Virus record (IMG/VR): IMGVR_UViG_3300037119_001461
Span: 1-34,189 of that record
Direction: 5' to 3' (one strand)
From: a virus
DNA length: 34,189 bases
Made by a program: the position numbers and the translations under genes. Under the pieces are notes generated by a model. It did no database searches and was not told where the DNA came from. It saw only the letters and a program-made list of their open reading frames with translations. Below are positions 2,624 to 19,470 of the stretch, piece by piece (the stretch's first letter is position 1; the number at the start of each line of letters is the position of its first letter).

Positions 2624-4277
2624 AGCTCAGACACCCACGCGCAGGGTCACGCTCGACGACCTTGCTGCCACGAGGTACGACATCGCGGGCTTCGCAGAGC
2701 TGATGGGCATCCGCGCACATCAGGGCCAGATACGCATCTGGCGCGAGATGACCAAGCGCGACGAGACCGAGTTCAGACCTCGATGGTTCACCATCTGTAT
2801 CAGCGCCGGGAACCGTGCCGGGAAGACCTTGATGGTGGCGATAGCTGTGCTGCACCACGCCATCTTCAAGCTTGGTCTGCGACCGCCCTTCAAGGACGAC
2901 TATCGCGAGCTTGAGCAGTTCAACCGACTCCCATACGACTGGTACCACTTCGGCATCCAGCAGGAAATCGGCGAGTTGCTCTTTCATGCCATCGTGCAGC
3001 TCATGGAAGGAACGCATGACGCACAGCGCGGCATCGGCAACCCATTGGTGGAGTCTTTCGGACCGATAGCCAAGTACGACGTCAAGGAACGTGGCGAATA
3101 CCGCTGGATACGTATCGACAAAGTCCTTGGTGGTGGGGAGATACATTTCAGAACCACTGCTGAGAGAGCCGTAGGTTCTCTCGGTAAAGACATGAACGGC
3201 ATATCTTTCGATGAGTGCGGCTTCGAGAATAACCTCACCTTCATCTTGGGCGAAGTCCTGCACAACCGACGACTCAGTACGGGCGGTCCCATCTTCCTCA
3301 TCTCTACGCCCAGTGAGGGTTTCGTCGAGTTCGCAGACGAATGGCAGAAGGGCGACCCAGCGGACCCACTCAAGGAACCGGACAGGATTTCCTTCAGGAT
3401 GTCTACGCGTGAGAACATCGGCTTCGGCGTAGACCAAAAGGTCTTCGACAGGATGCTCTTGGGCATGCCCCCGCATCTCATCCCCCAGAACATCGACGGC
3501 CACTTCATCCAAGGCCGACAAGCCTTCTTCGACGCACGCGCCGTCGATGCCATGTTCGTGACCGACCGACCCGAGCACGAACCTTGCATCCCGAGGCACA
3601 GATACGTGCAGGGCGTGGACCCCGCAGCGGTCTATGACAGCACGTGGAGCATCGTGCTGGACTGCACGACCGATGGCAGAGCCGATGGCGTCATGGCGAC
3701 CCGCAAGCAGGGCAAGCAGAAGGTCGTCGATGTCGCCCAGATGGTGGTCGATACGCACGTCGAGTACAGCCAGAAGAGTTCCCAGTGCGAGACAGCCGTC
3801 GATGTCACGGGCATGGGCGGTAAGGTCTTTCGCCAGCTCCTTGGTGACATCCACCCCTTCAGAGGGGTCGAGTTCGGTGGCACCAAGAAGAACAAGATGC
3901 GTCTCCTCACGGACCTCAAAGCCCTCATCGAGCAGGGACGCCTGCGCTTCCCGCGCACTGGCGTCTGGCTGGTGCTGCGCAGGCAGCTCTTGGCCTACGC
4001 CCTCGACGACCGACGCCTTGAGCAGGACGCCGTCATGGCATTGGCCGTCGCCGTCAAGCAGGTCATGCGCCAGATGGGCACGGGGCAGACGGCTGCGCCC
4101 TTCGCCTTCTGGGCTGGCTACACCGAGGTCCCATCCGAGCGCAAGGGCATACCCCGGACGGCTGACGGGAAGTTCAGGGCCAGTCTCTTGGGGCTGCCCT
4201 TGGCTGGAGAAGACCTCACCAAAGTGCGACTAAAGTACCGAATCGACCGAGCGGTCAAGCGTCGCTTAGTACTCTGA
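2616..4277 (+). CDS. terL: large terminase subunit (TerL)
   Basis: This 553-residue ATP-driven packaging motor cuts concatemeric DNA and pumps it through the portal. The N-terminal ATPase domain has a Walker A SAGNRAGKT at residues 63-71 and a Walker B with catalytic Glu in GISFDEC (D199, E200). The C-terminal RNase H-fold nuclease shows three acidic residues in their usual settings: D335 in GVDPAA, D396 in VDVTGMGG and D471 in LEQDAVMALA. The length is typical of the family. The start is GTG, overlapping the preceding gene. Unusually, the last codons and the stop lie inside the left arm of a perfect 19-bp inverted repeat (4263-4307). A basic tail after the nuclease (about residues 495-553) extends beyond the usual core. 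Confidence 0.95.
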   Translation: MTEAQTPTRRVTLDDLAATRYDIAGFAELMGIRAHQGQIRIWREMTKRDETEFRPRWFTICISAGNRAGKTLMVAIAVLHHAIFKLGLRPPFKDDYRELEQFNRLPYDWYHFGIQQEIGELLFHAIVQLMEGTHDAQRGIGNPLVESFGPIAKYDVKERGEYRWIRIDKVLGGGEIHFRTTAERAVGSLGKDMNGISFDECGFENNLTFILGEVLHNRRLSTGGPIFLISTPSEGFVEFADEWQKGDPADPLKEPDRISFRMSTRENIGFGVDQKVFDRMLLGMPPHLIPQNIDGHFIQGRQAFFDARAVDAMFVTDRPEHEPCIPRHRYVQGVDPAAVYDSTWSIVLDCTTDGRADGVMATRKQGKQKVVDVAQMVVDTHVEYSQKSSQCETAVDVTGMGGKVFRQLLGDIHPFRGVEFGGTKKNKMRLLTDLKALIEQGRLRFPRTGVWLVLRRQLLAYALDDRRLEQDAVMALAVAVKQVMRQMGTGQTAAPFAFWAGYTEVPSERKGIPRTADGKFRASLLGLPLAGEDLTKVRLKYRIDRAVKRRLVL

Positions 4278-4307: not shown

Positions 4308-4353
4308 CTGAGAACTTCCCGACACGAAAAGGTCGCACCACGAGCTGAGTGCG

Positions 4354-4362
4354 TGGTACGCT
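4354..4362 (+). promoter_or_regulatory. extended -10 promoter for a leaderless portal transcript
   Basis: TGG-TACGCT ends seven bases before the ATG at 4370, and no SD is present. The arrangement (hairpin, extended -10, ATG) matches 1280 and 29254. Confidence 0.5.
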
Positions 4363-4369
4363 CCCGGCC

Positions 4370-6406
4370 ATGACCCTTGCTCAGTACCCGGCGCTGAACT
4401 CTCGGTCACCCAGCTCTCCCCGCAACGGCACTTCGGGTCGTCCTGTCAGCCCGCAGTACCGCAATGCCCTCATCGCCGAGGAGATGGGCGACAAGGACGC
4501 TGCGAGCATGCTCAAGGAAGTCTCCGCTCGCATGGACACGAAGCGTGCCGAGATGTCGCGCTTCCAAGACCTCTGCCACCGCTGGGACAACCTCTACTAC
4601 CCCGACGTCATCACCGAGTACGGCCCCGACCACTGGCCCGAAGACCCCAACCGCTTGGTGCCCGGAAGGACGCACGTCTCGGTCAACGCCTACCCGGTCT
4701 ATGTGGATGTGCCAGCGTCGCTTCAGAGCGTCACGCCCATCGAGAACATCGCTCCTGCCGACCCGCGCATCGAGGAGAACCGTGAGCTGGCAGCCGCCGT
4801 GGAGCGGGTCTTCTTCGCATGGAAGGACGAGGTCGATTTCGAGCTGAAGTCGCACAAGGCGGCTGTCACGAAGGGTCTCTACGGTCGCACGGCAGCCAAG
4901 GTCTGGTGGGACAGCGATGCCAAGCGCCCAGACATCGACATCATCGACCAGCCACGCAACCTCTGGCTAGGCTTCTCAAGCACCGACTACAACCGTCTCG
5001 ACTGGTGCATCTACGCCTACCGCGTCCATCCCGACACGGCCATGGAAGAGTTCGGCGTGGACATCGCCAGAGACTCACAGGGCTTCCCCTTCGTCCGACC
5101 GTCCACGGGCAATAACCTCACCCTGACCCAGTCGGGCGGGACACGGGACTGGCTCACCGGGGACGACTCTCACATGGTCGAAGTGGTGGACTACTGGTAC
5201 AAGATGCCCAAGGGCGCACCCGTCGTGGGGCAGCGCACCGAGATGGAGACCTGCAACGCCGTCCTCGTCGGCAACATGATGGTCCGGCAGGCCAAGCATC
5301 CCGAGTACCGAGGCGTGCTGCCCTTCATCCCGGTCTTCAATACGTTCATCCCCGGCGTGCCTGACGGGCGCAGTGAGTTCTATGACATCGAGCAGCTTCT
5401 GCGAGAGAAGGACGAACGTCTCTCAGCCGGTGCCCAGATGATTGCCAAGGCTGTGGGCGGTCAGTACTGGCAGCTCGTCGGGCAGGAGTCGCCCGACAAG
5501 GTCCCACAGGGCATGGAGCCGCAGGCCGACAAGGTCATCGCCCCCGGCGCAGGCAACCGCATCGAGAAGATTGAGCCATGGATGCCGCAGTTCCAGTTCA
5601 ACGACTACCTCGACCGCATCGACAGGGAGTTGGCTGATGTATCGGGCCTCAATGACCTCCTTCGGGGCATGGCACCGGCACAGGTGCTCTCTTCAGGCAA
5701 GGCCATCAACGCGCTGGTGGCGAACTACGAAGCCCGCATCCGCATCAAGCGTGACCTCTTCTACCAGTGGCGACGCAACCTCTGGGACCTCGTCGTCACC
5801 GTCTGGAGTGAGCAGTCCACCGAGCTTCGAGGAGCCTTCGAGCAAGCCTCCTCGCTCGCCGTCCGAGCGCCCTCGCTGACGCCACGCGACGAGCTGGAGA
5901 CGGCGACGCTGGCTGCCAACAACGTCAACAGCAAGCTCTGGTCGCTGCGCCGGGGCATGGACGTCGTCGGCGTCGAAGACCCGGAGGCCGAGATTGACGT
6001 GGTCAAGGAAGAGCGCACCGACGCCTCGCTCTTCCCGGCTGACGTGCAGACGCAGGCTGCTCTGATGTCGCAGCTTCAGCAGCTCCAGATGACCGCACAG
6101 CAGATGCAGGCCGAGCAGATGCCACAGCAGGGTGCGCCCGGTGGGTCTCCGCAGGCAGGTGCGCTCAGTCAGCTCGCCCAGCAAGCCGCCATGGCTGCCC
6201 CTGCCGGTCAGGAGCAGATGAACGGGCCGGGTGAGGGGGCCGTGTTGCCCCCGGAGGCCATGCCAGCAAACGCACTGCCACCGGGGGCGGCAGCCCCACC
6301 CACGACGGGCGAGGGCTACAACGCCGTGAACCAGACCATGGTCAGAGAAGGTGAGCCGACGAACCGGCTGCTCTTGCAGCAGCCTCTCGGCCCGCCACCG
6401 GCCTAG
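4370..6406 (+). CDS. portal protein
   Basis: This 678-residue protein would form the dodecameric ring through which DNA enters and leaves the capsid. Evidence is its position right after terL, its size, and a portal-like body. The body has an N-terminal helix-rich wing (RMDTKRAEMSRFQDLCHRWD), aromatic-rich beta segments around residues 170-300, and a stem/crown region with IEQLLREKDERLSAGAQ followed by a helix with the DLLRGMAPAQVLSSGKAI motif (about residues 433-452). That last element is typical of portal stems. The C-terminal 110 residues are a Gln-, Pro-, Ala- and Met-rich low-complexity tail, probably the crown or an unstructured extension facing the internal proteins. I chose the ATG at 4370 because the upstream GTG at 4349 would overlap the promoter. 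Confidence 0.85.
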   Translation: MTLAQYPALNSRSPSSPRNGTSGRPVSPQYRNALIAEEMGDKDAASMLKEVSARMDTKRAEMSRFQDLCHRWDNLYYPDVITEYGPDHWPEDPNRLVPGRTHVSVNAYPVYVDVPASLQSVTPIENIAPADPRIEENRELAAAVERVFFAWKDEVDFELKSHKAAVTKGLYGRTAAKVWWDSDAKRPDIDIIDQPRNLWLGFSSTDYNRLDWCIYAYRVHPDTAMEEFGVDIARDSQGFPFVRPSTGNNLTLTQSGGTRDWLTGDDSHMVEVVDYWYKMPKGAPVVGQRTEMETCNAVLVGNMMVRQAKHPEYRGVLPFIPVFNTFIPGVPDGRSEFYDIEQLLREKDERLSAGAQMIAKAVGGQYWQLVGQESPDKVPQGMEPQADKVIAPGAGNRIEKIEPWMPQFQFNDYLDRIDRELADVSGLNDLLRGMAPAQVLSSGKAINALVANYEARIRIKRDLFYQWRRNLWDLVVTVWSEQSTELRGAFEQASSLAVRAPSLTPRDELETATLAANNVNSKLWSLRRGMDVVGVEDPEAEIDVVKEERTDASLFPADVQTQAALMSQLQQLQMTAQQMQAEQMPQQGAPGGSPQAGALSQLAQQAAMAAPAGQEQMNGPGEGAVLPPEAMPANALPPGAAAPPTTGEGYNAVNQTMVREGEPTNRLLLQQPLGPPPA

Positions 6407-6409: not shown

Positions 6410-9400
6410 ATGGCTAGGACTGGGCGCTTCGGACGCCAGTTCCGAGAAGCCACCGACCTCACAGCCAGCATCGTGGCGCTGTACGAGCGCTACGAACGCC
6501 AGCGCGAGGAGGTCATTTTCGACGCATGGCGCAACGGCGGCGAGTTCGAGGGCAAGCCGGTCACCGATGAACGGCTCTTGGACTTCATGCGCGACCGACG
6601 CAGCAACCTCGACAAGAGCGACCCGCTGTGGGCCGAATGGGACAACCGCATCGGCCAGTACCAGTTCGCCATCAGCGACCAGAAGAACTCCATCGCCCAT
6701 GCGCGGGCTATCGCTGCGGCATCGGCCATCCGTGACCCACGCAAGCGAGCAGCCGCCATGAACGCTGCCAACGCAGGCAGGGCGGCGTTCTTCCGCAGGA
6801 GTGCTACGGAGCATCCACGTGGCAGTGCGGCCTATCGAGACCTGATGCTAAAGGCCGCACAGTTCTCACGTGTGCAGCAGGTTGCCAGAGCCTCTGCACA
6901 GAAGGAGACCGAGAGCGAACGCTTCTCACGGCGCTATTACGCCATCTACGAGAACAAGATAAAGCCAGCCGAGCTGGTCATCGACGCCCTCGAACTCTTC
7001 ATGGTCAAGCACGGCAAGCTCACCAACAACGAAGCGTCGCAGCGTGGTGGGCTATGGGCCATGGACACGCAGGAGTGGGGCGACCTGCACGGCCTGCTCT
7101 CCGGGTTGCAGCAGGACGAGTCGTGGCCGCGCCTGCGTCGCATCATCAGGGGCTTCGTTCCGGGCTGGGACGGCAACCTCGACCCCGGTGACTTCACGCG
7201 CATCGCCAACGTCGCTCTGCAAGGCGTCAACGAGCAGATACGTCTGGCGAGGGCGCAGAAGGGCGACTACCGCACGGCCATCGACCAAGCCAAGTCACAG
7301 CGCGACCTCATCCGGCGCGTCAGCGTGCTGAACCGCAGGGCCAGCATCTTCGAGCGCTACAACGACGCCATCGAGAAGCACGCCACCGACAAGGCCGAGG
7401 CGCAGGGTGACCCCTTTGACGAGCTGGCTGCCGATAAAGCCTACGTCGATGAGCTGAACCGTCTCAAGCGCAAGGCCATGGGTGGAGCCGACCAGTCGCC
7501 CGAGATGCTGGAGCTGTATGCCCAGCTCGACGTCGAGGTCAACATGGTCGTCGGTAACGTCGATGGCGTGAAGACACAGAGCGCCGTGCCGTTGTACATG
7601 GCAGCCGAGGGCGCATCGGGAGGGACCGGGCGTCCTGACTTCGCCACGCAGGTCGAGGAGCGTGCGCGTGCGGCCAAGGAGCATCGCGACGACGTCAGTG
7701 GTCTCATCGCCGGGACGCATGTCTATGTGCCCATGACGGGTGGCGGTATCTCGCAGCAGCAGGTGGAGCCGGTCGAGGGTTCCGCTCCCGGCTACCAGAT
7801 AGTCGAGGTCGTCCTCGATGACATCACGGGGCTGCCCATGCAGGGCGACCCCAGCACGCGCATCATGCCCATGTCCTTCTCTGGCGGGTCGTACATCGAC
7901 TCCGATGGCAAGACGGTCAAGCTCAACCAAGGTGCCATCGGCGCACAGGTGACGATGAAGCCGGTGGCTGGCTGGGTGTACGTCCCGAGCGAGACGGACC
8001 CCAACGTCGGGAAGTGGGAGCTTCACACCATCGGGTCGGTGGGCTTCCATCAGGGCGTCAACGTCTGGGAGATGTTCCGTGAGCCGCTGGACCCCATCGG
8101 CGGCGGGACGTGGAGCGTCGTGGGCGACCTGCCGGGGTGGGTCGATGCCGACCTGAAGCCCTACGACACCGGCTACATCATGCAGCCGATGGGACCGCTG
8201 GACGATGCCATGCGGCAGGACTTCGTCAATCGGCTGGAGACGCAGGAGAGCCGCGACGCGGCCTCTACGCTGGGCACGTTCACGACGCCTGTCGAGCAGG
8301 CACCCGAAGCGCCGACGTTCGAGGCACCGCAGGGACCGGACGCAGCCGAGACGTTCGGTGGCACTGTCGCCAGAGCCGCAGCCGGTCGTGCCCCCGGACC
8401 GGGGGAGGGCGTCTTCGGCGGTGCCATCGGCAACATCCTTGGTTCTGCCGGTGCGCTGCTGGGCAAGCTGGCGTACGAGGAAGGGCAGACCCTCGCGGGC
8501 ATCTGGGGCGAGAACGACGCCGAGCGTGACGTACGCCTTGCGCAGGAGCGTGAGGCCACGGCTGCCGAGGCTGCCTCGAAGGGCTACGTCTGGGACCAGT
8601 CGTGGCAAGGTCGCTATCAGGCCAGCATGGACGGCCTGAAAATCATGCAGGACGGGCCGCTGTCATGGGGCGACTTGGTCTCGGCATACATCAACTACGA
8701 CCAGCCCACGCGTAAGACCTTCACCAACGTGGCCTCTTCCGATGTCGTGCGCATCGCCTCGCTCAACGGCTGGGGCGACGAAGCGCTCATCGGTGTCGCC
8801 AATAGCATCGACCAAGCCTCACAGCTCGCCGACGAGACACACGAGGCCATGGTGCTGAAGCGCATGGCCGACTCCGACTGGCGCATCGACCCACAGGCGA
8901 CGTTCGACTATTCCGAGACGCGCCTCAACGAGCGCGGTGACAGTGCATGGCAGCGCTTCTCGGACAGGTATGGTCTTACGCGCCCGACCGACCTCACGAA
9001 GGCTACGAACATCGAGAAGACACCGTTCTACGATGCCGCGCAGCAAGCTCAGGTGCCCAATGCCACGGCCATGGACTTCTCGGCGTCGGTCGCCAGCACG
9101 CCGAGCACGAACATCCCCGGCTTGGGGTCGATGGCGAACCCGGTCAACGAGCTTTCGGACCTGCCCGGTGCGCCACGTGCCCCCGAGACGCAGGACAGCG
9201 TGCCCAAGTCGCTCAAGGTGCCCAGCTTCGGGACGTTCAACGGCAAGGACATCACCGTGCCGCAGGCGTTCGGCATGGGCGGGAATGTGGGCGGTGGACT
9301 CATCGGCGGCGCACCGGGTGGGCGTTCTGGTGGGGTCTATCAGGGCGGTGCTGGCGGCATCCCACAGGAGGCTGCCCAGAACACCGCAGCACCCAAGAAC

Positions 9401-9442
9401 TCATACAACTACAACCCCTATAACCCGGTCTTCAGGAAGTGA
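6410..9442 (+). CDS. large structural or internal virion protein of unknown fold
   Basis: This is a 1010-residue protein with no family I can name. Residues 1-420 are helical and charged, with coiled-coil-like stretches. About 440-600 is beta-rich, with short Gly/Pro-bounded strands (THVYVPMTGGG, GWVYVPSETDP). A Gly/Ala segment near 665-690 (GNILGSAGALLG) could insert in a membrane. The end is a flexible Gly-, Asn- and Pro-rich tail finishing in YNYNPYNPVFRK. It follows the portal by three bases and overlaps the giant gene by four (GTGA), so the pair is coupled. Large proteins encoded next to the portal in short-tailed phages are often ejected with the DNA (T7 gp15/gp16-type by analogy), and I infer that role. 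A tape-measure function is an alternative, but the sequence has no long continuous coiled coil. Confidence 0.75.
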   Translation: MARTGRFGRQFREATDLTASIVALYERYERQREEVIFDAWRNGGEFEGKPVTDERLLDFMRDRRSNLDKSDPLWAEWDNRIGQYQFAISDQKNSIAHARAIAAASAIRDPRKRAAAMNAANAGRAAFFRRSATEHPRGSAAYRDLMLKAAQFSRVQQVARASAQKETESERFSRRYYAIYENKIKPAELVIDALELFMVKHGKLTNNEASQRGGLWAMDTQEWGDLHGLLSGLQQDESWPRLRRIIRGFVPGWDGNLDPGDFTRIANVALQGVNEQIRLARAQKGDYRTAIDQAKSQRDLIRRVSVLNRRASIFERYNDAIEKHATDKAEAQGDPFDELAADKAYVDELNRLKRKAMGGADQSPEMLELYAQLDVEVNMVVGNVDGVKTQSAVPLYMAAEGASGGTGRPDFATQVEERARAAKEHRDDVSGLIAGTHVYVPMTGGGISQQQVEPVEGSAPGYQIVEVVLDDITGLPMQGDPSTRIMPMSFSGGSYIDSDGKTVKLNQGAIGAQVTMKPVAGWVYVPSETDPNVGKWELHTIGSVGFHQGVNVWEMFREPLDPIGGGTWSVVGDLPGWVDADLKPYDTGYIMQPMGPLDDAMRQDFVNRLETQESRDAASTLGTFTTPVEQAPEAPTFEAPQGPDAAETFGGTVARAAAGRAPGPGEGVFGGAIGNILGSAGALLGKLAYEEGQTLAGIWGENDAERDVRLAQEREATAAEAASKGYVWDQSWQGRYQASMDGLKIMQDGPLSWGDLVSAYINYDQPTRKTFTNVASSDVVRIASLNGWGDEALIGVANSIDQASQLADETHEAMVLKRMADSDWRIDPQATFDYSETRLNERGDSAWQRFSDRYGLTRPTDLTKATNIEKTPFYDAAQQAQVPNATAMDFSASVASTPSTNIPGLGSMANPVNELSDLPGAPRAPETQDSVPKSLKVPSFGTFNGKDITVPQAFGMGGNVGGGLIGGAPGGRSGGVYQGGAGGIPQEAAQNTAAPKNSYNYNPYNPVFRK

Positions 9443-12400
9443 CCTACGACCCGACACGCAGTGCGGGCTTTCGTACGCAGGCCGAAGAAGAAGCGTATCG
9501 CCAGTCGCAGGCTGTTCCGACGCACGCCACGACACCACGCGTCGAAGCACCAGCCTATGGCTGGACGGATGGCTATGCCAATCGCCGTCTCTCCAGCAAC
9601 GGTGGCAGCTTCTCGACGGGTGACTATCTGGGCGGTCGCTACGGGCAGCCGCTCTATGACCCCGGCGTCGTCACCGCTGCGCAGGCCAGAGGCCACACGA
9701 AGGACACGGTCTCCGAGGTCGGGAAGTTCGCCCTCTCCGTAGCGCCCGAGCGCACGGTCGCTCCCTACGACCCCTCGAACGACCCGCCGCCTCGCCAGAT
9801 TGGTGACTTCGAGGGCATGTTCGGTGGGCTGACACGTCTCGCCACGGGCTTCCTGCCAAAGGACGTACAGGACACGCTGGCGAAGCTGCCCGAGGCACTG
9901 GGCACGCTCCTCGACCTGCCCTTCGGGGCGCTGCGCCATGACCTTCCCGGCTTCGGCGTGCAGGAGTCGTTCGAGAAGATGGCGAGCACGCCCGACAAGG
10001 AGGCTGCGCGTCGGAAGATTGCGGCCAACCCGACGTGGGGTCATTGGTACATGACCGAGTACATCAACTCGCACATGGGCGACTTCAGCGACGCTCATGG
10101 CATCCCGCATGCGCTGGGCATGCTCACGGCTCCGGGGGCATCACCCATCGGCAGGCTCTTCGGTGCCATGAACGTGCCCTATGAGGCAGCCACGAGGACC
10201 ATTGCCGGGGGCGCGCTGGACTGGCTGCCCGGTGTCGAGATGGACCGCGCCACCGAGCTGCTGGGCACGCCCGATGAAGACCTGCATCCATTGCTCCTAC
10301 AGCTCAAGCAGCAGTACCAGCGTGGTGACTTCGATGAGGATGGCCTGCTCGACCGATTGACCACACAGGGCTTCGGTCTCACCAACGACCACTTTCACGG
10401 CCTGCTGCTGAGCTTCATCACCGACCCGCTCATCCTCGCCTCGTTCGGCACCGGGACGTTCGCACGCATGACCAGCGCAGGTGGGCTGGCGGCACGTTCT
10501 GCACGCGTCTTGGCAGCCGTCCACAAGCTGCCCGAAGGCAGCCCACTGCGCATCGCCATGGCCGACTCGCGCATCCAAGCCGCTACGAAGAAGACCTCCT
10601 TCGGCAGGTACGCCAACCGTGACCTCTCGTATCGGGCTACGGAGCACTTCATCGAGCAGCGCAAGACCAACCCAGCTATCCAGACGCTGGTCAGCGAGGC
10701 CGAGGCAAAGCTCTCACCGCTGCATCGTGCGCAGGTCGCCATCGAGAGCGTCGCCAAGCCCGCCAACGCCATCAGCGAGGTCATCAACTCGCCCTTTGGC
10801 ATCTTCGGCCAGAACGGTGCTGCGCGTGCCGTGCTCTCGAAGTTCACGGCTGACACGGGTGACGGGCTGCTGCGCGGGCACGACTACAGCACGGCGGTGC
10901 AGCTCATCGGCGGCGACATCTCGAACCCCGGTGCGGCGAGCGAGGCACTGGGCCACTACCAAGCGCAGGCACAGCGCGGCTTGGTCATCGAGGCGCTGCA
11001 CAAGCAGCTACGCGTCGAGGGCAAGGGCGAAGGGCCGACCAACCTGCCTGACAGCCTGAACATCGAGGAGTACGTCAAGGCGTACGACCAGATGGACAAC
11101 CCGCTCAGCGCCCGTGAGATGGAGTCGTTCATCCGTGCCACGCGCAGGACGTACGTGCCGGAACCAGACCCGATGCGTACGCCCGCAGAGCACCAGCGGT
11201 TCTTGGAGACGTATGCCAAGGGCATGAACGAGCAGGCAGCCCTAAAGCTCGCACATGCCGTGCAGATACCCATCGAAGAGGCTCGACGGCGTGTGGGCAG
11301 GGGTGGGGACAACGTGTGGAGCTTCGTGGACGGCCTGCACTGGGGTCGCTTCTCCAAGGAGTGGGGCGACATCCGTGGCACCGACCTCGAAGCTGCCGGT
11401 ATCCGCATGGATGCCGTGGTCAACAAGCGCAGCGCGGTGTACGTCACCGAGCAGAACAAGGTCAGGGACGTGAAGCGAGCCACGCCCGTGGGGCCACGCG
11501 AGCTGGCCGACATCCGTGCCAAATCGGTCCTGCGGCTCGTCAAGAAGGCGCTGAAGTCGAATGACCGCACCGACGTCGAGCGTGCGCTGTCAGCCGTTGG
11601 TCAGTACGACCAGCTCCGCAATAACTTCTTCACGCAGACGTCGGCACGTGACGAGCTGACCATGCTGCGCTGGATGGAGCGCTACCTTGAGGAGGGGCTG
11701 AAAGAGGAGACGTTCGTCAAGGTCGTGACCGACCGTACCCAGCTCGAAGCGCCGGGGCTGTGGCAGCTTCTGGACGACGCCAACGCACGCATGGGCGGCA
11801 ACGAGCCTGCCTACCTGATGGGCATAGGTCCCACGCCCGACAAGGCGTTCCGTCCCGTGCATGACGAGCAGGGCCATCTCATCGGCTACCGAGCGTGGCT
11901 GGACGTGGCGGCTGACTCATCGCCGACAGCACTGCCCACGAAGTTCGACGACCTGCGCTTCCGATTGCTCACACCCATCCGTGCCGAGCACATCCTTCAG
12001 GAGAACCGACGTCGCTTCATCCAGATAGGAGCCGAGCGCTTCGGCCTGCGCGAGGCCGACACGACGGCGCTCTGGAGCGAGCTGCGCAAGGCAGGGCTGC
12101 GTAGTGGCAGGACGCTGCGCAGCTTCAAGGGTGAAGAGCTGGATGCCATCGTCGCCGCTGCGGCCATCTCCGACGAGCTGAAGACGAGTCTGGGCGACCG
12201 TGGTCTGGCGCGTCTCACAGCGCAGGCCATGGAAGGCGACATCAGGATGGTCGGCGTCATCCCCAAGATGACGGGCAAGCTGAAGTCCGGTGCTGCCGGT
12301 AAGGCCAATAACTCACTGGGGCATGTATCCGAGTACATCTATCCCTACGTGCGCTTCAACGTCTCGCCGTTCTTCGCACTTCAGGAGTACATCGAGCCGT

Positions 12401-15400
12401 TCTTCTTCAATATCCTGCGTGGCGTCAAGGTCGGCTTCCGTGAAAGCAGTGAGGACTCTGCATTCAGGCAGATGGTGTTCAGCATCGGCGGTGACGAACT
12501 CATGGCTCAGGATGCCATGAGTCGTGAGATGCGCACCATCGGTGTCTATGCGTCACGTGAAGCTGTCAATCCCAATACGCAGATTGGTCGAGAAGTCAGG
12601 GGCATCATCGGCAGGCTGACGTCGCGTACGGGTATAGCAGGTGTCGCCAGTACCAAGTGGATAAACCACACCAACCTCACCATGGAACGTCTGGGTGTCA
12701 TCGGTCGCCAGATGATAAATGACATGGAAGAGGCTGCTCATCGTGCAGGGTCGGATGAGTTCGACGGTGCATGGATGAAGATTGCTGGCGAGATGCAGCG
12801 GATGGTCGATGAGGGCCAGATAAAGTACAAAGACCCCAAGACCGGGCAGATGAAGACGATGAAGAGTCGTCAGCTCAGCGATGGCGAGATTGTGCGCCTG
12901 TACATGGAGCAGAGCGGTATCTCGCAGCGTGGTCGGTCGTGGCAGACGCAGCTCTGGGACGGCCAGAACCCCAGCAACCTTGGTCGTGTCAGCGCCATCC
13001 GGCAGGCTTCGCTGGCTCAGCTCTTCGGGCGTGACAGTGGGGCTGCGCTGCGTGCTGACATCGCCAACAGGGTCATCGACCAGTGGGAGTTCCGGGGCAG
13101 GCTGTCACGTCTGGGCTTCGACAGCGACTACACGCGCCGAGCGTGGGACATGATGACCGGCCCATCGGTCGATGACTTTCTGGATAGCGTCGAGAGAAGC
13201 TTCCGACAGGCAGGACGTACACCCGAGCAGGCAAAGCTCTCACGCGACCTGATGGACGCACATCTCCAGATATACGCCGCACATCACGGCCTCGACATCG
13301 AAGAAGCCGTCGCACGGAAGTTCAACAAGAGCGCCCAGTACCTCAACGCCAATCAGTCGCTGCCCTCGAACGCCTACCCGCAGTCGGTCGCACGTAACGT
13401 CAGCGACCATGGCTGGGAGCTGGCCGACGAGTTCGAGGCCGAGCGCACCATCGAGGCTGCCGACGAGCTTGCGCGTGCCGAGCAGGTGGCTGCCGACTTG
13501 CGCTACGAGGGTGACCGTGCCCGTGTCATGGACGAGCTGGACTCACGGCTTGCTCGTCGCCGGGAGTATCGACAGGACCCCGAGCTGTACCGTTCGGTCT
13601 TCGGGGTCGAGCCACCGACCGGACCGATGGCCGACATCGAGGACATCGACATCCGCATCGCTACCATCGAGGAGACCGAACGGGCGTTCGATTACGGCGG
13701 GACAGGGGCTATAGGGGAGCGCGCCGCAAGGAAGCTGGCGAGGCTGCGTGCCGACCGCGAGATACTTACTGCTAGCCCCGATGAGCCACTGCGCCTGAGC
13801 AGCCAAGGGCGATGGGCTGACGCTGACCTCGTCGCGCCCGAGCGTGCTCCTAAGTTCGATAACTATGACGAGCTTGTGGCCGAGATAGAGAGCCGCAACG
13901 TCATCGACGACACGACGCACTCCATCGTCGTACAGGACGATGGCACCGAGCGTCATCTCTTCACCCTGACCAACGCTGATGGCAAGGTCGTCAACGTCAC
14001 CGAGCTGACCACATCACCCAACAGCAAGGTCGCACGTGATATCCAGACGGTCACCAAGGAGGGCGAGCGTCGTCAGGGTCACGCTACGAGGGTCTATCGC
14101 GAGATAGAGGAAGCCGGGTACGACCTTTCAGGCAGTGGCAGGTTCGTCACCGCCGAGGGCGAGGCGTTCGTGCAGAGTCGCCAGCCCCGTGCGGTCAGCG
14201 GTGAGGTCATCACGGGCGATGAGCTGGTGGTGTCTTCCGACGACTGGCGACGACAGACGCTGGATGACCTCGATGAGCCGACCATCGTCGCCGTCATGGG
14301 CTTCGACCGCGACCTCGCACGTCTCATCGCCACGGTCATCAAGGACCCTACCGACGCTGCGCAGATATTCGACCTCGTACGCAATGACCCCGAGCTGGGC
14401 ATGTCATTGGTCTCACACCTTGCCACGTCTGGTGGTGACCTTCAGGCCATGCTCAAGAGGTTCAGCTCAGACCCGCCGACCGACGCTCATCGCCGCATCG
14501 CCGCCGACATGAACATGGGCGAGGGCTTCATGGGCAAGAAGGACTGGACGGCCCGTGACGTGCAGAACCTCGACCGTGTGCGCGCACGACGTACCGAGGG
14601 ATTGGATGACGTCGATGAGCTGGACTTCGCTGATGGTGTGAGCATCGAGACGCAGCTCCCGCTGCACACCATGGACCTCGACGTGGCGCAGGCGGTCAGC
14701 GCCGAGGTAGCGCCTTTGGTGGCCGAGGCCGTGGGACGTCGTACGGGTGCTCGCATCGTGGGCATCGAGGACTCCATGGAAGGCGACATGGATGCCGGTG
14801 CGCTCGTTTCACGTGGGACACGCTTCGTCGTGCGGGCTGACAGTCCGGGTGCCATCACGGACGCCGCCGACGAGATAGCCGTCCTCACTGGGCGTGAGAC
14901 CTATGTCATCGAGGACGCCGGTCGTACGGTCATCGGCTTCGACCCGACCTACGGCGACGAGGTCACGCACATGTCACGTGCGGTGAACGAGCTGGATGCC
15001 GAAGGTCTTGCCGACGAGCTGGACGAAATCATCCTCGCTGCCGACGAAGCGCTCATGGACATCGACGAGGAGGCATGGTCGGCCAACCGTGCCCGGTACG
15101 AGCATTCGTCGAAGTTCGAGCCGGATGTCTATCGCTACCAGCGTGGTGCCCGAGGGCGTGGCTGGCGTGGTGCCACGACGTTCGACCGCAGACGTAGGGC
15201 CACGCTCTACATCAACGACAACGCCGACGCCACGACCATCGTCCATGAGACCTTCCACACGTGGGCGCGTGACCTCGACCGCAGCGGCAAGGCGGCGCTC
15301 GTCGATGCCTACACGGCGTCGCCCAAGTACAGGCGCATGGCCGTCGCCAGACGTCCTACCGGGGCGAAGCTCCAGCGCATGGCCGAGGAGTGGGCAGCCG

Positions 15401-16272
15401 AGCAGTTCGAGGCGTACGCAGCCTCTGGGCTGGCCCCCGACCCGAAGCTGCGCCTGCACAACATCTTCAACGCCTATGCCGACTGGGGGCGCAGGTCGGG
15501 CGTGGTGTCGAATACTCGCGTGGCCGCACTAGACCCGAAGCTTCAGGCGCTCTTCGACAAGATGACGCCAGAGGTACACGGCAAGGAGATGGCCGTCTTC
15601 GACCCGCAGCAGTTCCGCATCATGGAGACGTTGCGTGTCGCCATCATGCGTGCCGAGGACGAGTCACACACGACGCAGTATTTCCGTAGGAACAAGACAT
15701 TCCTTGAGCGCAGCGTCAATCATCCGTTCTTCGGTTTGTACCCCGTCTCGTACATGTACGGGAAGGTCCTACCAGAGATGGCACGCTTCCTGTTCAAGAA
15801 ACCCTTTGGCGTCAACGCACCACTTGCAGGTGCAGCCATGTGGAACCACGTATTCGACGCCATGATGCTGGAGATGTCAGGCGATACGGAGTTCGCGCAG
15901 CTCCTCACAGACAACCCCGAGGCCGTGCGCTTCTTCACGCTCCTGCTGCCCGGATTGCCCAATGACATCAGCGTGAACTTCCCGGCATGGATGCGCAGGG
16001 TGGCGACCAATAGCCTCACTGATGAACCGACTGACTTCGGTGGCCTGATGACCGACTACCTGAGCTATGCCATGAGCGACAGGCTCTCACCAGAGGCCAT
16101 CATGGATGGCCTTTCCGAGTCGAGTCGTGTCGTCGGCGGCATGCTCGACGTGTTCGGCGGTCAGGGATACGAGAGCGAGGCCGAGCTGAAGAACCAAGAG
16201 TCACTGACCGAGCAGTCACAGGGTATGTACGGTCGGTACGCTCCAGAGCCTTACTCTGAAGCTGTACAGTGA
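9439..16272 (+). CDS. giant multidomain virion protein with zincin motif (polyvalent-protein-like)
   Basis: At 2277 residues this is about one fifth of the window. The start is GTG at 9439, overlapping the preceding stop. Residues 1-900 are mostly helical without a known signature. Around 960-1200 there are hydrophobic, aromatic stretches (YIYPYVRFNVSPFFALQEYI). Residues 1541-1580 contain ERRQGHATRVYREIEEAG followed by a Gly-rich turn, resembling motif A of GNAT acetyltransferases. A metallopeptidase-like site lies at HETFH (1936-1940), with candidate third ligands E1984 and E1988 in EEWAAEQFEAY, in line with a gluzincin arrangement. The C-terminal 300 residues are again hydrophobic and amphipathic. 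Such mixtures match the published 'polyvalent protein' concept: injected, multi-domain proteins acting in the new host. Transport into the cell and enzymatic activity are inferred. Confidence 0.8.
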   Translation: MTYDPTRSAGFRTQAEEEAYRQSQAVPTHATTPRVEAPAYGWTDGYANRRLSSNGGSFSTGDYLGGRYGQPLYDPGVVTAAQARGHTKDTVSEVGKFALSVAPERTVAPYDPSNDPPPRQIGDFEGMFGGLTRLATGFLPKDVQDTLAKLPEALGTLLDLPFGALRHDLPGFGVQESFEKMASTPDKEAARRKIAANPTWGHWYMTEYINSHMGDFSDAHGIPHALGMLTAPGASPIGRLFGAMNVPYEAATRTIAGGALDWLPGVEMDRATELLGTPDEDLHPLLLQLKQQYQRGDFDEDGLLDRLTTQGFGLTNDHFHGLLLSFITDPLILASFGTGTFARMTSAGGLAARSARVLAAVHKLPEGSPLRIAMADSRIQAATKKTSFGRYANRDLSYRATEHFIEQRKTNPAIQTLVSEAEAKLSPLHRAQVAIESVAKPANAISEVINSPFGIFGQNGAARAVLSKFTADTGDGLLRGHDYSTAVQLIGGDISNPGAASEALGHYQAQAQRGLVIEALHKQLRVEGKGEGPTNLPDSLNIEEYVKAYDQMDNPLSAREMESFIRATRRTYVPEPDPMRTPAEHQRFLETYAKGMNEQAALKLAHAVQIPIEEARRRVGRGGDNVWSFVDGLHWGRFSKEWGDIRGTDLEAAGIRMDAVVNKRSAVYVTEQNKVRDVKRATPVGPRELADIRAKSVLRLVKKALKSNDRTDVERALSAVGQYDQLRNNFFTQTSARDELTMLRWMERYLEEGLKEETFVKVVTDRTQLEAPGLWQLLDDANARMGGNEPAYLMGIGPTPDKAFRPVHDEQGHLIGYRAWLDVAADSSPTALPTKFDDLRFRLLTPIRAEHILQENRRRFIQIGAERFGLREADTTALWSELRKAGLRSGRTLRSFKGEELDAIVAAAAISDELKTSLGDRGLARLTAQAMEGDIRMVGVIPKMTGKLKSGAAGKANNSLGHVSEYIYPYVRFNVSPFFALQEYIEPFFFNILRGVKVGFRESSEDSAFRQMVFSIGGDELMAQDAMSREMRTIGVYASREAVNPNTQIGREVRGIIGRLTSRTGIAGVASTKWINHTNLTMERLGVIGRQMINDMEEAAHRAGSDEFDGAWMKIAGEMQRMVDEGQIKYKDPKTGQMKTMKSRQLSDGEIVRLYMEQSGISQRGRSWQTQLWDGQNPSNLGRVSAIRQASLAQLFGRDSGAALRADIANRVIDQWEFRGRLSRLGFDSDYTRRAWDMMTGPSVDDFLDSVERSFRQAGRTPEQAKLSRDLMDAHLQIYAAHHGLDIEEAVARKFNKSAQYLNANQSLPSNAYPQSVARNVSDHGWELADEFEAERTIEAADELARAEQVAADLRYEGDRARVMDELDSRLARRREYRQDPELYRSVFGVEPPTGPMADIEDIDIRIATIEETERAFDYGGTGAIGERAARKLARLRADREILTASPDEPLRLSSQGRWADADLVAPERAPKFDNYDELVAEIESRNVIDDTTHSIVVQDDGTERHLFTLTNADGKVVNVTELTTSPNSKVARDIQTVTKEGERRQGHATRVYREIEEAGYDLSGSGRFVTAEGEAFVQSRQPRAVSGEVITGDELVVSSDDWRRQTLDDLDEPTIVAVMGFDRDLARLIATVIKDPTDAAQIFDLVRNDPELGMSLVSHLATSGGDLQAMLKRFSSDPPTDAHRRIAADMNMGEGFMGKKDWTARDVQNLDRVRARRTEGLDDVDELDFADGVSIETQLPLHTMDLDVAQAVSAEVAPLVAEAVGRRTGARIVGIEDSMEGDMDAGALVSRGTRFVVRADSPGAITDAADEIAVLTGRETYVIEDAGRTVIGFDPTYGDEVTHMSRAVNELDAEGLADELDEIILAADEALMDIDEEAWSANRARYEHSSKFEPDVYRYQRGARGRGWRGATTFDRRRRATLYINDNADATTIVHETFHTWARDLDRSGKAALVDAYTASPKYRRMAVARRPTGAKLQRMAEEWAAEQFEAYAASGLAPDPKLRLHNIFNAYADWGRRSGVVSNTRVAALDPKLQALFDKMTPEVHGKEMAVFDPQQFRIMETLRVAIMRAEDESHTTQYFRRNKTFLERSVNHPFFGLYPVSYMYGKVLPEMARFLFKKPFGVNAPLAGAAMWNHVFDAMMLEMSGDTEFAQLLTDNPEAVRFFTLLLPGLPNDISVNFPAWMRRVATNSLTDEPTDFGGLMTDYLSYAMSDRLSPEAIMDGLSESSRVVGGMLDVFGGQGYESEAELKNQESLTEQSQGMYGRYAPEPYSEAVQ

Positions 16273-16324: not shown

Positions 16325-16873
16325 GTGGCAGACGAGCAGCAGGCGGTCGGAGAGGCCGAAGCCACCCCGGAGACGGGGTCGCAGGCGCAGACTCCCACCG
16401 CTGAGCAAGTCGAAGCCGAGTACAAGGCCCGTCTTTCAGGGAAGGACAAGGCCCACGCGGCAGAGACAGCTACTCTTCGGTCGCAGATAGCAGCACTGGA
16501 AGCTTCACAGAAAGACTCCACGCAGCGCACTGCCACCGAGAACGACGCCATCAAGACAGAGCTAGAGAACACCAAGAAGCAACTGGTGCAGACGCAGCGC
16601 GACGCACTCGTCACCACGAGGGCGGCACGCTTCCCCAACGCAGCAGAAGCTCTTGAGCCGGATGTCCTAGCGTCGATGGACGAAGCGAAGCTCGCAGGTC
16701 TCGAAGCCAGACTGGCCCCAGCGTCAGCAGGTCTCCCGCCGCTCGCATCCTCCACTCCCGCCAAGGCTTCTACGGCACCCAAGCCACAGTCGGAGAAGAC
16801 CGTCGCAGAACTCGAAGCCGACCTTCGCAGGTTCGGCCCACAGTTCGAGCAGGAAATCCGACGCAACATGTAG
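16325..16873 (+). CDS. scaffolding-like protein
   Basis: This 182-residue, acidic, Ala/Glu/Gln-rich protein would guide capsid assembly and leave before maturation. The N-terminal 30 residues are low-complexity. Residues 35-95 form a predicted coiled coil (LRSQIAALEASQKDS, ENTKKQLVQTQRDAL). A Pro/Ala/Ser/Thr linker follows, and the final helix is charged and amphipathic (LEADLRRFGPQFEQEIRRNM), where capsid-binding segments usually sit. It lies immediately before the major capsid protein, the standard place for a scaffold. The start is GTG, behind GGAGGA with a short four-base gap. The identification rests on composition, size and position because scaffolds are poorly conserved. Confidence 0.75.
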   Translation: MADEQQAVGEAEATPETGSQAQTPTAEQVEAEYKARLSGKDKAHAAETATLRSQIAALEASQKDSTQRTATENDAIKTELENTKKQLVQTQRDALVTTRAARFPNAAEALEPDVLASMDEAKLAGLEARLAPASAGLPPLASSTPAKASTAPKPQSEKTVAELEADLRRFGPQFEQEIRRNM

Positions 16874-16885: not shown

Positions 16886-17872
16886 GTGGGCGACGTTTAC
16901 GTCTCCGCAGGTACAGGGGCGTCCAACTCTGGAGCCATGGCCGGTGCGCCGACCATGACCGCCAACTTCGACCGCACCGTCACGGCGCTGGTCGAGCGAC
17001 GCATCCTCGACAACCTGCGCGAGGTCTCGCGCTGGCTCGTTCCGGGGGCGTATATCCCCGGCCGGCTCATCCCCGGCACCAACCTCATCCGCCACATCGC
17101 CTACGGCGACCTGCCGGTGGATGACCCCATCATCGCCGTCGAGGGCATCGCGCCCGACGAGGAGCCGCTGACCATCGGTTACGACGAGTACGCAGCCGTG
17201 CAGCGTGGTCGCATCATCGGTGTCACCGACGTGGCGCTCCAGATGTCACCCCATGAGCTGATGGCCGTGGCTGCCGACAAGGTGTCCCACGACGCGCTGA
17301 TGACCGTTGACCGCAGCGTCGCTGCTGCCGTCATGGCCGGGACCGGCATCACCCTCACGGTGGCCGGGGCTGGCGTGGTCGCAGCGGATGTCCGGCGCTG
17401 GGTGACGGACCTGAAGTACGCCAACATCCCACCGTTCTCGGACGGCTTCTACCTGTGCATGATTCACCCCGACGTCGCGTACGACCTTCAGGGCGACACG
17501 AGCATCGGTGGCTGGATTGAGGCCAGCAAGTACGCTGACCCCTCCCGCCTGCTGAACGGCGAGATTGGGCGCATGTACGGCATGCGCTTCATCGAGACCA
17601 CGGTCGGGACGCGCAACGCTGCCGCTACCGACACGTTCAACACCGTGGCCTTCGGCCCCGACTACTTCGCCTTCGGCGACCTCCAGTCGGTCGAGACCTA
17701 CATGATTCGACCGGGCGGCAACCATGCCGACCCGCTCGCCCAGAAGGCTCTGGTGGGCTACAAGGGCATGTGGGGTGCCAAGACGCTGGAGAGTGCGTCG
17801 CTGGTGGCGACTGGCGCTGGGCCTCGCTACGGCAAGGTCGAGGGTCACGCAGGCACCATCAACCGGGCATAG
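16886..17872 (+). CDS. major capsid protein, N4gp56 family
   Basis: This 328-residue protein is the main shell subunit. It matches the N4gp56-type capsid family (HK97 fold) as I know it. The features are an N-terminal LVERRILDNLREVSRW helix, the segment YDEYAAVQRGRIIGVTDVAL with the long helix that follows, a central stretch in which FYLCMIHPDVAYDL precedes IGGWIEASKYADPSRLLNGE, then the IGRMYGMRFIETT strand, and a C-terminal QKALVGYKGMWGAKTL. The family is typical of N4-like and other short-tailed phages and of some prophages. The start is GTG, with GGGAG at 16873-16877 eight bases ahead. A perfect 11-bp hairpin follows the gene, which may protect or end the abundant capsid mRNA. Confidence 0.93.
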   Translation: MGDVYVSAGTGASNSGAMAGAPTMTANFDRTVTALVERRILDNLREVSRWLVPGAYIPGRLIPGTNLIRHIAYGDLPVDDPIIAVEGIAPDEEPLTIGYDEYAAVQRGRIIGVTDVALQMSPHELMAVAADKVSHDALMTVDRSVAAAVMAGTGITLTVAGAGVVAADVRRWVTDLKYANIPPFSDGFYLCMIHPDVAYDLQGDTSIGGWIEASKYADPSRLLNGEIGRMYGMRFIETTVGTRNAAATDTFNTVAFGPDYFAFGDLQSVETYMIRPGGNHADPLAQKALVGYKGMWGAKTLESASLVATGAGPRYGKVEGHAGTINRA

Positions 17873-17920: not shown

Positions 17921-18568
17921 ATGACCTACACACCACCGCCTCTGTCCGACCTGCGTGCGTCGGTGAGCCGTGACCTTCGCGACCCTACGAACAAGACGTT
18001 CACGACGGGGGAGGTCGATGACCTCATCCGCATGGGCATCGTCGAGGTCTCACGCGTCTATCCCAAGGAACGAGTGCTCGAACTCCTCGTCACCGAGGAC
18101 GGGCAGCGCACCTTCGACGTGCTGGATGCCTACTCGCTGTTCAGGGTCGAGCTGCTGGACATCGAGGGCAACACGCGCATGGGCATCCCGGCGTCGGTCG
18201 ATAACGTCCACTCCGAGACGGGCTGGGACTTCCACGCTGAAAAGCTCTACCTGCCTGCCTATGCGTCGGTGCGTCTGGCTGTCGTTGATGAACCCAAGGT
18301 CAGGGCGTGGGGCTATTGGAAGCGTGACGTCCTCACGGATGACACCGACGTCTTCGATGGTGATGCCGATGCCGAATACGCTTCTCGCTCATATGCACTC
18401 ATGGTCGGCTATCAGCGTCTACAGAACGACAGGCTGCTCTTCCAGCAGTGGCTCACCACGACAGGCAACACGGATGTGAGTCCTAACCAGCTCGCGCAGA
18501 CGGCTGACATGTATCAGGGTGAGTGGAGGGCGTACCGACAGCGTCTTCGCATCGGCCAGAGGCAGTAG
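17921..18568 (+). CDS. head-tail adaptor (connector) protein
   Basis: This 215-residue protein probably docks under the portal and links the filled head to the tail. The N-terminus LSDLRASVSRDLRDPTNKTFTTGEVDDLIRMGI is the helix-turn-helix opening of many head-tail adaptors, which read 'LR..VR..L.D.....WSD.EL...I..A'. A beta region spans about residues 50-125. A C-terminal helical bundle with Gln-rich ends (QLAQTADMYQGEW) completes the adaptor layout. Its place after the capsid gene supports the call. There is no SD in front of the ATG because the capsid hairpin takes up the space, so translation may depend on local structure or readthrough coupling. It overlaps nothing downstream; the next gene starts three bases after its stop. 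Confidence 0.75.
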   Translation: MTYTPPPLSDLRASVSRDLRDPTNKTFTTGEVDDLIRMGIVEVSRVYPKERVLELLVTEDGQRTFDVLDAYSLFRVELLDIEGNTRMGIPASVDNVHSETGWDFHAEKLYLPAYASVRLAVVDEPKVRAWGYWKRDVLTDDTDVFDGDADAEYASRSYALMVGYQRLQNDRLLFQQWLTTTGNTDVSPNQLAQTADMYQGEWRAYRQRLRIGQRQ

Positions 18569-18570
18569 CC

Positions 18571-19470
18571 ATGGACCTGACCAGACCTGTCACCTACCGT
18601 GGCCTGACGCTCACGGGGGCCGAGGGAGGGCCGGGTGGCGCTCAGCCCATCGACGGCATCCGCCTCTCCCGTGCCCGCTACACGGACGTCCCGGTCGCTG
18701 CCTACACCGAGAAGCGCAGTCTTGGTGCAGGGCTGGACGCCTCCGACGCCTACTTGGGCGGTCGCATGATGGTGCTCACCGGGGAGGTCTTCGGCGAGAA
18801 CAAGGGCACGCTCTTCGACCGACTCGACTTCATGCGTGAGGTCTTTTCGGCATCGAGTGCGTTCGAGTCGAACCCGGACCTCAAGGGCTACCTGCCCTTG
18901 GAGTTCTCACAGCCCACCAACCTGACGACGCACTGGCCCACGGGCTTCATCGCGAAGGTGCTCTTCGTGCGTCCCATGACGCAGAACGAGCACGACATCG
19001 TCTTCGGTGCCATCGGTGGCAAGCCGACCAACGGCTACGTGGTGCCTTTCACCGTGGCGCTTCAGGCCAAGGACCCCTTCTTCCACGCTGTCGTCGATGC
19101 GTCGGAACTCATCACCGGCAACGGCAGCGAGGACTTCCGCAACCGTGGCAACGCACCATCGCCGCTGCGCATCGAGCTGCACATCAACGACACCGCTGCT
19201 GGTGGCTTCACGCTGGACAATGACCGCACCGAGATGACGCTGACCATCCCGGCAGGGGCGTCGCCGAGGCACATCGTCTGCGACTCGGCCCAGAAGATAG
19301 TGACGCTGAACGGTGACCTCGCCATGGACCTCATCGAGATAGAGACGGGCACATGGCCGGTGGTCATCCCGACCGACGAGGAAGGGCCATTGGACGCACA
19401 TGTCTGGACGACAGGGGCTACGCCATTGGTCGCACCCTCCAACCTCTCGTGGCCGGAACTCTGGTACTAG
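18571..19470 (+). CDS. distal tail (Dit-like) protein
   Basis: This 299-residue protein resembles siphovirus distal tail proteins, which form the ring joining tail and host-contact apparatus. The N-terminal half carries the expected pattern: a short strand-rich start (VTYRGLTLTG), then an arginine-loop region and RMMVLTGEVFGENKGTLFDRLDFMREVF, where Dit families read 'i.l.g.i.g.....l...ld.L...l'. The C-terminal half (about residues 165-299) is a beta-sandwich-like segment with IPAGASPRHIV and a tail that reads like the family's second domain. The start was moved to the ATG at 18571 because AGAGG (18558-18562) stands eight bases upstream. The hub gene follows three bases after its stop, a standard Dit-hub pair. 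Confidence 0.75.
   Translation: MDLTRPVTYRGLTLTGAEGGPGGAQPIDGIRLSRARYTDVPVAAYTEKRSLGAGLDASDAYLGGRMMVLTGEVFGENKGTLFDRLDFMREVFSASSAFESNPDLKGYLPLEFSQPTNLTTHWPTGFIAKVLFVRPMTQNEHDIVFGAIGGKPTNGYVVPFTVALQAKDPFFHAVVDASELITGNGSEDFRNRGNAPSPLRIELHINDTAAGGFTLDNDRTEMTLTIPAGASPRHIVCDSAQKIVTLNGDLAMDLIEIETGTWPVVIPTDEEGPLDAHVWTTGATPLVAPSNLSWPELWY

What the first reader, a model, noticed from the sequence alone, without database searches (positions are those of the whole stretch)
9439..16272. 2277-residue giant gene between portal and scaffold
One gene takes about one fifth of the window, and with its neighbour makes 3.3 kilo-residues of unassigned protein at the position where short-tailed phages encode internal, ejected proteins. 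It shows no tape-measure-like coiled coil. It combines helical regions, hydrophobic aromatic segments and separate enzyme-like segments, as in polyvalent proteins injected with DNA.
Basis: partly seen in the sequence, partly recalled or inferred. Interest (0 to 1): 0.75.

Follow-up and report, generated by a model that had tools for sequence, protein, structure and literature searches.

The report
Giant phage protein with swappable enzyme cargo
This virus of bacteria carries one very large gene whose product looks like a delivery frame, constant at both ends, that holds exchangeable enzymes (here a protease and an acetyltransferase-like part) in between, probably injected into the host with the DNA; it belongs to a large family known here only from environmental DNA.

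Summary
The 2277-residue gene (9439-16272) is real. It is conserved in place (terL-portal-1010 aa gene-GIANT-scaffold-major capsid) in more than 80 environmental viral contigs, and no relative was found among 50,697 phage records. The family shares a helical N-terminal frame (about 1-1330 in the window) and a near-invariant C-terminal domain (about 2065-2193). The stretch between them varies: products range from 1267 to 3680 residues.

A zinc-metallopeptidase signature (HExxH, with a Glu about 45 residues on) lies just before the C-terminal domain in all 33 members of at least 1953 residues. It is absent from 19 complete shorter ones. Cargo differs between relatives: C5 cytosine DNA methyltransferase, ParB-like domains, ADP-ribosyltransferase and acetyltransferase. 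The window member carries a GNAT-like segment plus the zincin. One lineage gives an empty-site comparison (L108 no insert, L100 methyltransferase insert, L124 a second-zincin insert).

The fold predicted for the N-terminal frame matches one viral protein, a 'large polyvalent protein associated domain' protein. There is no tape-measure, N4-RNA-polymerase or Microbacterium-EK homology. Best reading: an ejected polyvalent protein with exchangeable cargo, probably cut by its own zincin. Packaging, ejection and cleavage are inferred, not shown.

The parts
2616..4277 (+). terminase large subunit (553 aa)
   Evidence: phrog_2 5.7e-19; 21 relatives at 45-68% identity in IMG/VR
4349..6406 (+). portal protein, P22-like (685 aa)
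   Evidence: phrog_156 1.5e-19; next to terL in 95 of 99 loci
6410..9442 (+). 1010-aa partner protein of unknown function, conserved N-terminus MARxGRFGR; candidate second internal protein
   Evidence: next to the portal in 85 of 86 loci and to the giant in 82 of 85; A2, R3, G5 and F7 invariant in 23 relatives
9439..16272 (+). giant polyvalent protein (2277 aa)
9439..13428 (+). N-terminal frame (residues about 1-1330), all-helical, shared by all complete members
   Evidence: HMM hits in 118 ORFs; AF2 mean pLDDT 66, up to 94 around residues 600-790; BFVD match A0A6J5RYQ7 E=1.8e-8
13471..14451 (+). variable cargo slot (residues about 1345-1671)
   Evidence: blastp of window against L048 and L046 breaks at 1325/1344 and resumes at 1672/1681
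13894..14268 (+). GNAT-like acetyltransferase segment (residues 1486-1610); RxxGxA motif RRQGHA at 1544
   Evidence: phmmer 8.6e-8 to L073, whose segment passes the Pfam GNAT cut-off; no direct Pfam hit in the window
14452..15132 (+). weakly conserved middle module with the DWTA motif (residues about 1672-1898)
   Evidence: 26% identity to L048, E=1e-6; motif at 1702
15124..15468 (+). zincin-type metallopeptidase segment: HETFH at residues 1936-1940 (15244-15258), downstream Glu near 1983-1984
   Evidence: HExxH in all 33 family ORFs of at least 1953 aa; H, E, H and downstream E nearly invariant in 28 members; expected by chance 0.06 per protein; strands plus helices at pLDDT about 80
15631..16017 (+). 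C-terminal frame domain (residues 2065-2193), motif LERSxNHPFxGLYPxSYMxGKVLPE
   Evidence: 20 invariant columns in 11 members; 80 IMG/VR loci found with it
16325..16873 (+). scaffold-position protein (182 aa)
   Evidence: weak coiled-coil/leucine-zipper-type Pfam matches only; between giant and MCP in relatives
16886..17872 (+). major capsid protein (328 aa)
   Evidence: phrog_1357 1.4e-26
17921..18568 (+). 215-aa protein at the head-tail connector position
   Evidence: conserved family; function from position only; no PDB match
18523..19470 (+). Dit-like protein (315 aa)
   Evidence: phrog_33 3.7e-6; SPP1_Dit Pfam below cut-off; profile's only PDB hit is 2x8k at E=0.27

Best explanation
The gene encodes a polyvalent protein that is packaged inside the head and ejected into the host with the DNA. 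Its N-terminal helical frame and its C-terminal domain are the constant parts; I infer that they serve packaging, ejection and docking with the virion. The region between them is a cargo bay whose enzymes differ between relatives and probably act on the host or on its defences in the first moments of infection (DNA methyltransferase against restriction; ParB-like, ADP-ribosyltransferase and acetyltransferase domains against host nucleic acids or proteins). In the long forms, including this one, a zincin-type metallopeptidase just before the C-terminal domain probably cuts the polypeptide to release the cargo from the frame. In the window member the cargo is a GNAT-like acetyltransferase segment plus the zincin. 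Shown: the frames, the variable slot, the conserved metallopeptidase signature, the enzyme domains of relatives, the fixed place in the virion operon. Inferred: packaging, ejection, self-cleavage, targets.
For: Fixed position between portal/1010-aa gene and scaffold/MCP in more than 80 loci. Length range from 1267 aa (L193) to 3680 aa with conserved ends. HExxH in all 33 ORFs of 1953 aa or more and in none of 19 complete ORFs of 1433-1850 aa; zinc ligands nearly invariant. Pfam cargo over the curated cut-off: DNA_methylase 3.9e-36 in L100, ADP-ribosyltransferase PF03496 in L084 and L079, ParB_N (two stretches) in L083 and GNAT in L073. Empty-site comparison: L108 has its two frames nearly adjoining (1344 to 1352) where L100 has a 306-aa methyltransferase insert and L124 an insert with a second HExxH. 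A recent insertion or loss of about 240 aa in L080 against its 71%-identical relative L084. On a frame tree the zincin state changes once and the cargo state at least 6 times. N-frame fold matches a polyvalent-domain protein, E=1.8e-8. The published class predicts this logic: zincin as hub domain, self-processing, virion-gene neighbourhood (PMC5512222).
Against: No virion proteomics and no cultured member. No Pfam LPD domain in any member scanned; LPD38 searched explicitly in 12 records without a match, though that search's controls were silent too. The window GNAT is recognised only through L073. Nothing shows that the zincin is active or cuts its own chain; the short forms do without it. The single significant BFVD hit has a low global TM-score (0.16), as expected for a large model of modest confidence, but still weak support. 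The substrates of the cargo enzymes are unknown.
Confidence: 0.72

Rival explanations
1. A tape-measure or other purely structural tail protein of a long-tailed phage that happens to be large.
For: A Dit-like gene, typical of siphovirus baseplates, lies downstream; very large helical proteins are common among tape measures; a few tape measures appear among non-significant fold hits.
Against: Lies between portal and scaffold, before the capsid gene; only one gene (215 aa) lies between MCP and the Dit-like gene, leaving no room for a tail tube protein or terminator there; many short helices instead of long coiled coils; exchangeable enzyme domains; length varies almost threefold.
Confidence: 0.07
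2. An internal core protein packaged in the head that stays in the virion or only helps assembly; the zincin is the head-maturation protease and the variable middle is filler.
For: No separate prohead protease was recognised between portal and capsid; zincin next to a near-invariant domain; N4 virion RNA polymerase also carries a metallopeptidase region needed for encapsidation, as cited in PMC5512222.
Against: 19 complete short forms, among them L108 and L100, lack HExxH yet keep the same head genes; the middle holds recognisable enzymes such as a C5 methyltransferase, which is not filler.
Confidence: 0.12
3. A virion RNA polymerase of the N4 type or a relative of the 13-kb giant gene of Microbacterium cluster EK podoviruses.
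For: Similar size class and position near the portal; giant virion-associated protein reported for Burro (PMC7302621).
Against: Family profile gives no significant match to Burro gp27 or ArMaWen gp31, which also lack HExxH; no match of either predicted half to solved structures; best N4-like RNAP fold hit is not significant, E=0.064; no motif-B-like K-x(5-8)-YG in the window protein.
Confidence: 0.03
4. Not packaged: a late-expressed multi-enzyme protein that acts inside the infected cell during assembly.
For: No direct evidence of packaging exists in this study.
Against: Constant place inside the portal-capsid operon and constant ends; one polypeptide carrying unrelated activities is the reported hallmark of delivered proteins (PMC5512222).
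Confidence: 0.06

Closest known systems
Polyvalent proteins of phages (Iyer et al. 2017, PMC5512222), e.g. phage P1 DdrB
   Same: Unrelated enzymatic domains in one chain, zincin metallopeptidase, ParB-like, ART, GNAT and DNA methylase domains, genes beside virion genes of portal-terminase phages.
   Different: Neither frame domain matches a Pfam LPD; complete members share the same two ends with cargo between; the resident zincin sits at a constant place and has a degenerate counterpart in one lineage.
A0A6J5RYQ7, 'Large polyvalent protein associated domain-containing protein', uncultured Caudovirales phage (BFVD)
   Same: N-terminal frame fold, E=1.8e-8, probability 1.00; length 1449 aa, like the short forms.
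   Different: 14% sequence identity; cargo not examined; not in the record collections available here.
N4 virion RNA polymerase (schitoviruses)
   Same: Giant protein near portal genes, reported to be packaged and ejected and to carry a metallopeptidase domain (PMC5512222; abstract of PMC12633501).
   Different: No RNA polymerase fold or motif found here.
Giant gene of Microbacterium cluster EK and Burro podoviruses (PMC7302621)
   Same: Giant gene beside the portal; Burro product is virion-associated and probably processed.
   Different: No detectable homology, no HExxH, gene order giant-portal-capsid instead of portal-1010 aa-giant-scaffold-capsid.
T7-type ejection proteins gp14-16
   Same: Role proposed by analogy: internal proteins expelled into the host at infection (PMC8954989).
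   Different: No sequence or fold match found; gene position differs (before scaffold and capsid).

Membership tests
Phage polyvalent proteins | Two or more domains of disparate biochemical activity in one polypeptide | tested here: met
   Relatives: ParB_N stretches plus zincin, ART plus zincin, GNAT plus zincin. Window: zincin signature plus GNAT-like segment, the latter only by homology to L073.
Phage polyvalent proteins | Gene among late virion genes of a portal-terminase phage | tested here: met
Phage polyvalent proteins | Domains of the published repertoire (zincin MPTase, ParB, ART, GNAT, DNA methylase) | tested here: met
Phage polyvalent proteins | Pfam LPD domain in the chain | tested here: not met
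   No LPD model among the matches in any member scanned. Not a required feature of the class; one fold match to an LPD-named protein.
Phage polyvalent proteins | Carried in the virion and delivered to the host | not testable with these tools
   No isolate, no proteomics
Zincin metallopeptidases (HExxH plus downstream Glu) | HExxH followed by a conserved Glu on a second helix, after a beta sheet | tested here: met
   HETFH at 1936 and EEWAAEQ at 1983 in the window; nearly invariant in 28 members; strands and helices in the model
Zincin metallopeptidases (HExxH plus downstream Glu) | Zinc binding and proteolysis | not testable with these tools
   Needs the purified domain
Zincin metallopeptidases (HExxH plus downstream Glu) | Match to a known zincin family profile or structure | tested here: inconclusive
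   No Pfam or PDB match for the window member
GNAT acetyltransferases | R/Q-x-x-G-x-G/A acetyl-CoA motif in a GNAT-like domain | tested here: inconclusive
   RRQGHA at 1544 and homology to the Pfam-passing GNAT of L073, but no Pfam hit for the window and a low-confidence model there
N4-type virion RNA polymerase | T7-like polymerase fold and motifs | tested here: not met
Microbacterium EK/Burro giant protein | Sequence homology | tested here: not met
Tape-measure protein | Long coiled-coil rod placed between tail tube and Dit genes | tested here: not met

The most novel reading that the evidence does not exclude
A previously undescribed family of uncultured, presumably short-tailed phages uses a natural modular injection vehicle: a fixed two-ended frame with a cargo bay into which different enzymes are inserted and exchanged, with a built-in metallopeptidase that frees the cargo, and with one lineage whose resident protease is degenerate and which carries other cargo in its place.
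Probability: 0.45. Interest if true: 0.75.

Novelty: new variant of a known kind. Interest (0 to 1): 0.58.

Why it matters
Polyvalent proteins have been described mostly as varied domain combinations. Here one homologous frame with the same ends carries different cargo in related viruses, including an empty-site comparison, so it can be asked directly which parts carry out packaging and ejection and which parts are freight. It would also be a natural model for protein delivery by phages, and it annotates a large set of environmental phages without a member in the phage collection searched.

Tried and rejected
Single-sequence scan of IMG/VR with the giant itself found no relative; the terL and C-terminal alignment scans did. 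A single-sequence scan with the short L015 giant gave one new contig. Microbacterium EK/Burro homology rejected. N4-type polymerase rejected. Tape measure rejected. LPD38 was my first guess for the C-terminal domain: no match in 12 records, with silent controls, so only weakly excluded. PDB profile searches with the cargo/zincin region, the 1010-aa protein, the 215-aa protein and the 966-aa protein found nothing credible. Fold searches of both halves against PDB gave nothing significant. My guess that the roughly 240-aa insert of L080 is HipA-like was not supported (11.7 bits, far below the cut-off of 30.5). My guess of an ART-like segment in L035 gave no Pfam hit. A podovirus paper that surfaced in the literature search (AP-20-A, PMC13299392) reports closest relatives in Paenibacillus phages and no giant protein in the passages read. 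The genome-contig scan gave one locus, in a metagenome-assembled genome, so no host is claimed.

Full report
Observation. The window is a 34,189-base IMG/VR virus record. ORF 9439-16272 on the + strand starts with GTG, has 2277 codons without a stop, and overlaps the end of the preceding 1010-codon ORF by four bases. Upstream lie terL and a P22-like portal; downstream a 182-aa scaffold-position gene, the major capsid protein, a 215-aa gene at the connector position and a Dit-like gene. Neither the giant nor the 1010-aa protein has a Pfam or PHROGs match.

Relatives. tblastn against 50,697 phage records found no relative of the giant, of terL or of the portal, nor of a long-form or a short-form giant from the family, whereas a control with the ArMaWen portal found 58 records. 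In IMG/VR the terL found 21 relatives and, as an alignment, 327 or more; the C-terminal domain alignment found 96 places, of which 80 were kept. In genome contigs only one contig was found, in a metagenome-assembled genome. Across these loci the order terL-portal-1010 aa-giant-scaffold-MCP is nearly constant: 95/99, 85/86, 82/85, 85/88 and 80/81 adjacent pairs.

Anatomy. Family alignments show two conserved ends and a variable middle. The N-terminal frame (window 1 to about 1330) was recognised in 118 ORFs. The C-terminal domain has 20 invariant columns in 11 members, with the motif LERSxNHPFxGLYPxSYMxGKVLPE. Complete giants range from 1267 aa (L193) to 3680 aa (L035).

Metallopeptidase. HExxH lies shortly before the C-terminal domain in all 33 ORFs of 1953 aa or more; 19 complete ORFs of 1433-1850 aa have none. 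The chance expectation is 0.06 per protein. In 28 long forms the H, E, H and a Glu 48 alignment positions after the first His are invariant or nearly so. AlphaFold2 places strands, the HExxH helix and a following helix with pLDDT near 80 in an otherwise poor model (mean 51.5). This is the signature of zincins with a glutamate as third ligand; activity is not shown.

Cargo. Pfam matches over the curated cut-off occur in the middle region of relatives: C5 cytosine methyltransferase in L100 (3.9e-36) and ADP-ribosyltransferase PF03496 in L084 and L079; two ParB_N stretches in L083 and GNAT in L073. Family-internal profiles extend ParB-like domains to L035, L066, L071, L075, L076, L070 and L057, and the ART to L078, L080, L081 and L082. 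In the window, residues 1486-1610 resemble the L073 GNAT (phmmer 8.6e-8) and carry RRQGHA at 1544. Against its near relatives L046 and L048 the window loses homology at about 1325-1344 and regains it at about 1672-1681, so the GNAT-like segment sits in a slot that the relatives fill with other sequence.

Empty-site comparison. L108, L100 and L124 form one clade. L108 aligns to L100 up to 1344/1233 and again from 1352/1539, and to L124 up to 1388/1478 and again from 1373/1785. The inserts hold the methyltransferase in L100 and an HEMAH-containing segment in L124. L124 also keeps a degenerate copy of the resident zincin without HExxH (profile E=2.7e-7; weaker in L108, 1.5e-3). So this lineage has lost, or never had, the resident catalytic motif. 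The L124 segment shows only a weak sub-threshold Pfam match (E=0.016) and was not pursued. On a tree of the N-frame the zincin state changes once and the cargo state at least six times; the tree tool warns that long branches meet, so deep branching is uncertain.

Fold. The N-half model (mean pLDDT 66.2) is almost all helical. It has no significant match in PDB and one in BFVD: A0A6J5RYQ7, named a large polyvalent protein associated domain protein, E=1.8e-8, probability 1.00. The C-half model has none in PDB. No transmembrane-strength segment was seen.

Interpretation. The pattern fits the polyvalent-protein class of Iyer et al. 2017 (PMC5512222), which reports zincins as the commonest domain, proposes self-processing by them, and places phage members beside virion genes. 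I file the family there at the level of kind, with frame domains that match no Pfam LPD. That it is ejected is the best inference from position and architecture; the presumed short tail is inferred from the gene set and is complicated by the Dit-like gene.

What is new. As far as these searches show: a homologous frame with constant ends and interchangeable cargo, including an empty-site comparison, in a phage group absent from the phage collection searched. The general idea is known; the family and the clarity of its modularity are not described in the papers found.

Noticed in passing
window 24392-26173: 593-aa protein with a long collagen-like Gly-X-Y stretch encoded by 9-base repeats; PHROGs tail fibre matches.
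   Followed up: no
window 6410-9442: The 1010-aa neighbour begins MARTGRFGR; A2, R3, G5 and F7 are invariant in 23 relatives although the rest diverges strongly, as if the N-terminus were a docking or packaging tag.
   Followed up: partly
window 18523-19470: A Dit-like protein in a phage whose capsid-to-Dit interval has room for only one gene, so no tail-tube gene was recognised there.
   Followed up: partly
L143 11130-14951 and L072 6572-10588 (one contig): The giant is interrupted by a single in-frame TAG between the N-frame and the rest; sequencing error, nonsense change or real split cannot be told apart.
   Followed up: partly
L080 against L084: Two 71%-identical giants differ by an insert of about 240 aa in the middle region (residues about 1914-2154 of L080), a recent gain or loss; function unknown.
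   Followed up: partly
family loci: Of the loci checked, those with zincin-bearing long giants have 62-69% GC; short-form loci mostly have 50-54% GC, but L108, L100 and L124 are at 65-67%.
   Followed up: no
L124 (CAIQRS010000185.1): The only genome contigs relative is a 50-kb contig binned as uncultured Anaeromyxobacter; host or misbinned virus not decided.
   Followed up: no
window 30923-32098 and 33319-33990, - strand: A helicase/primase-like ATPase and an Erf-like annealing protein on the opposite strand.
   Followed up: no
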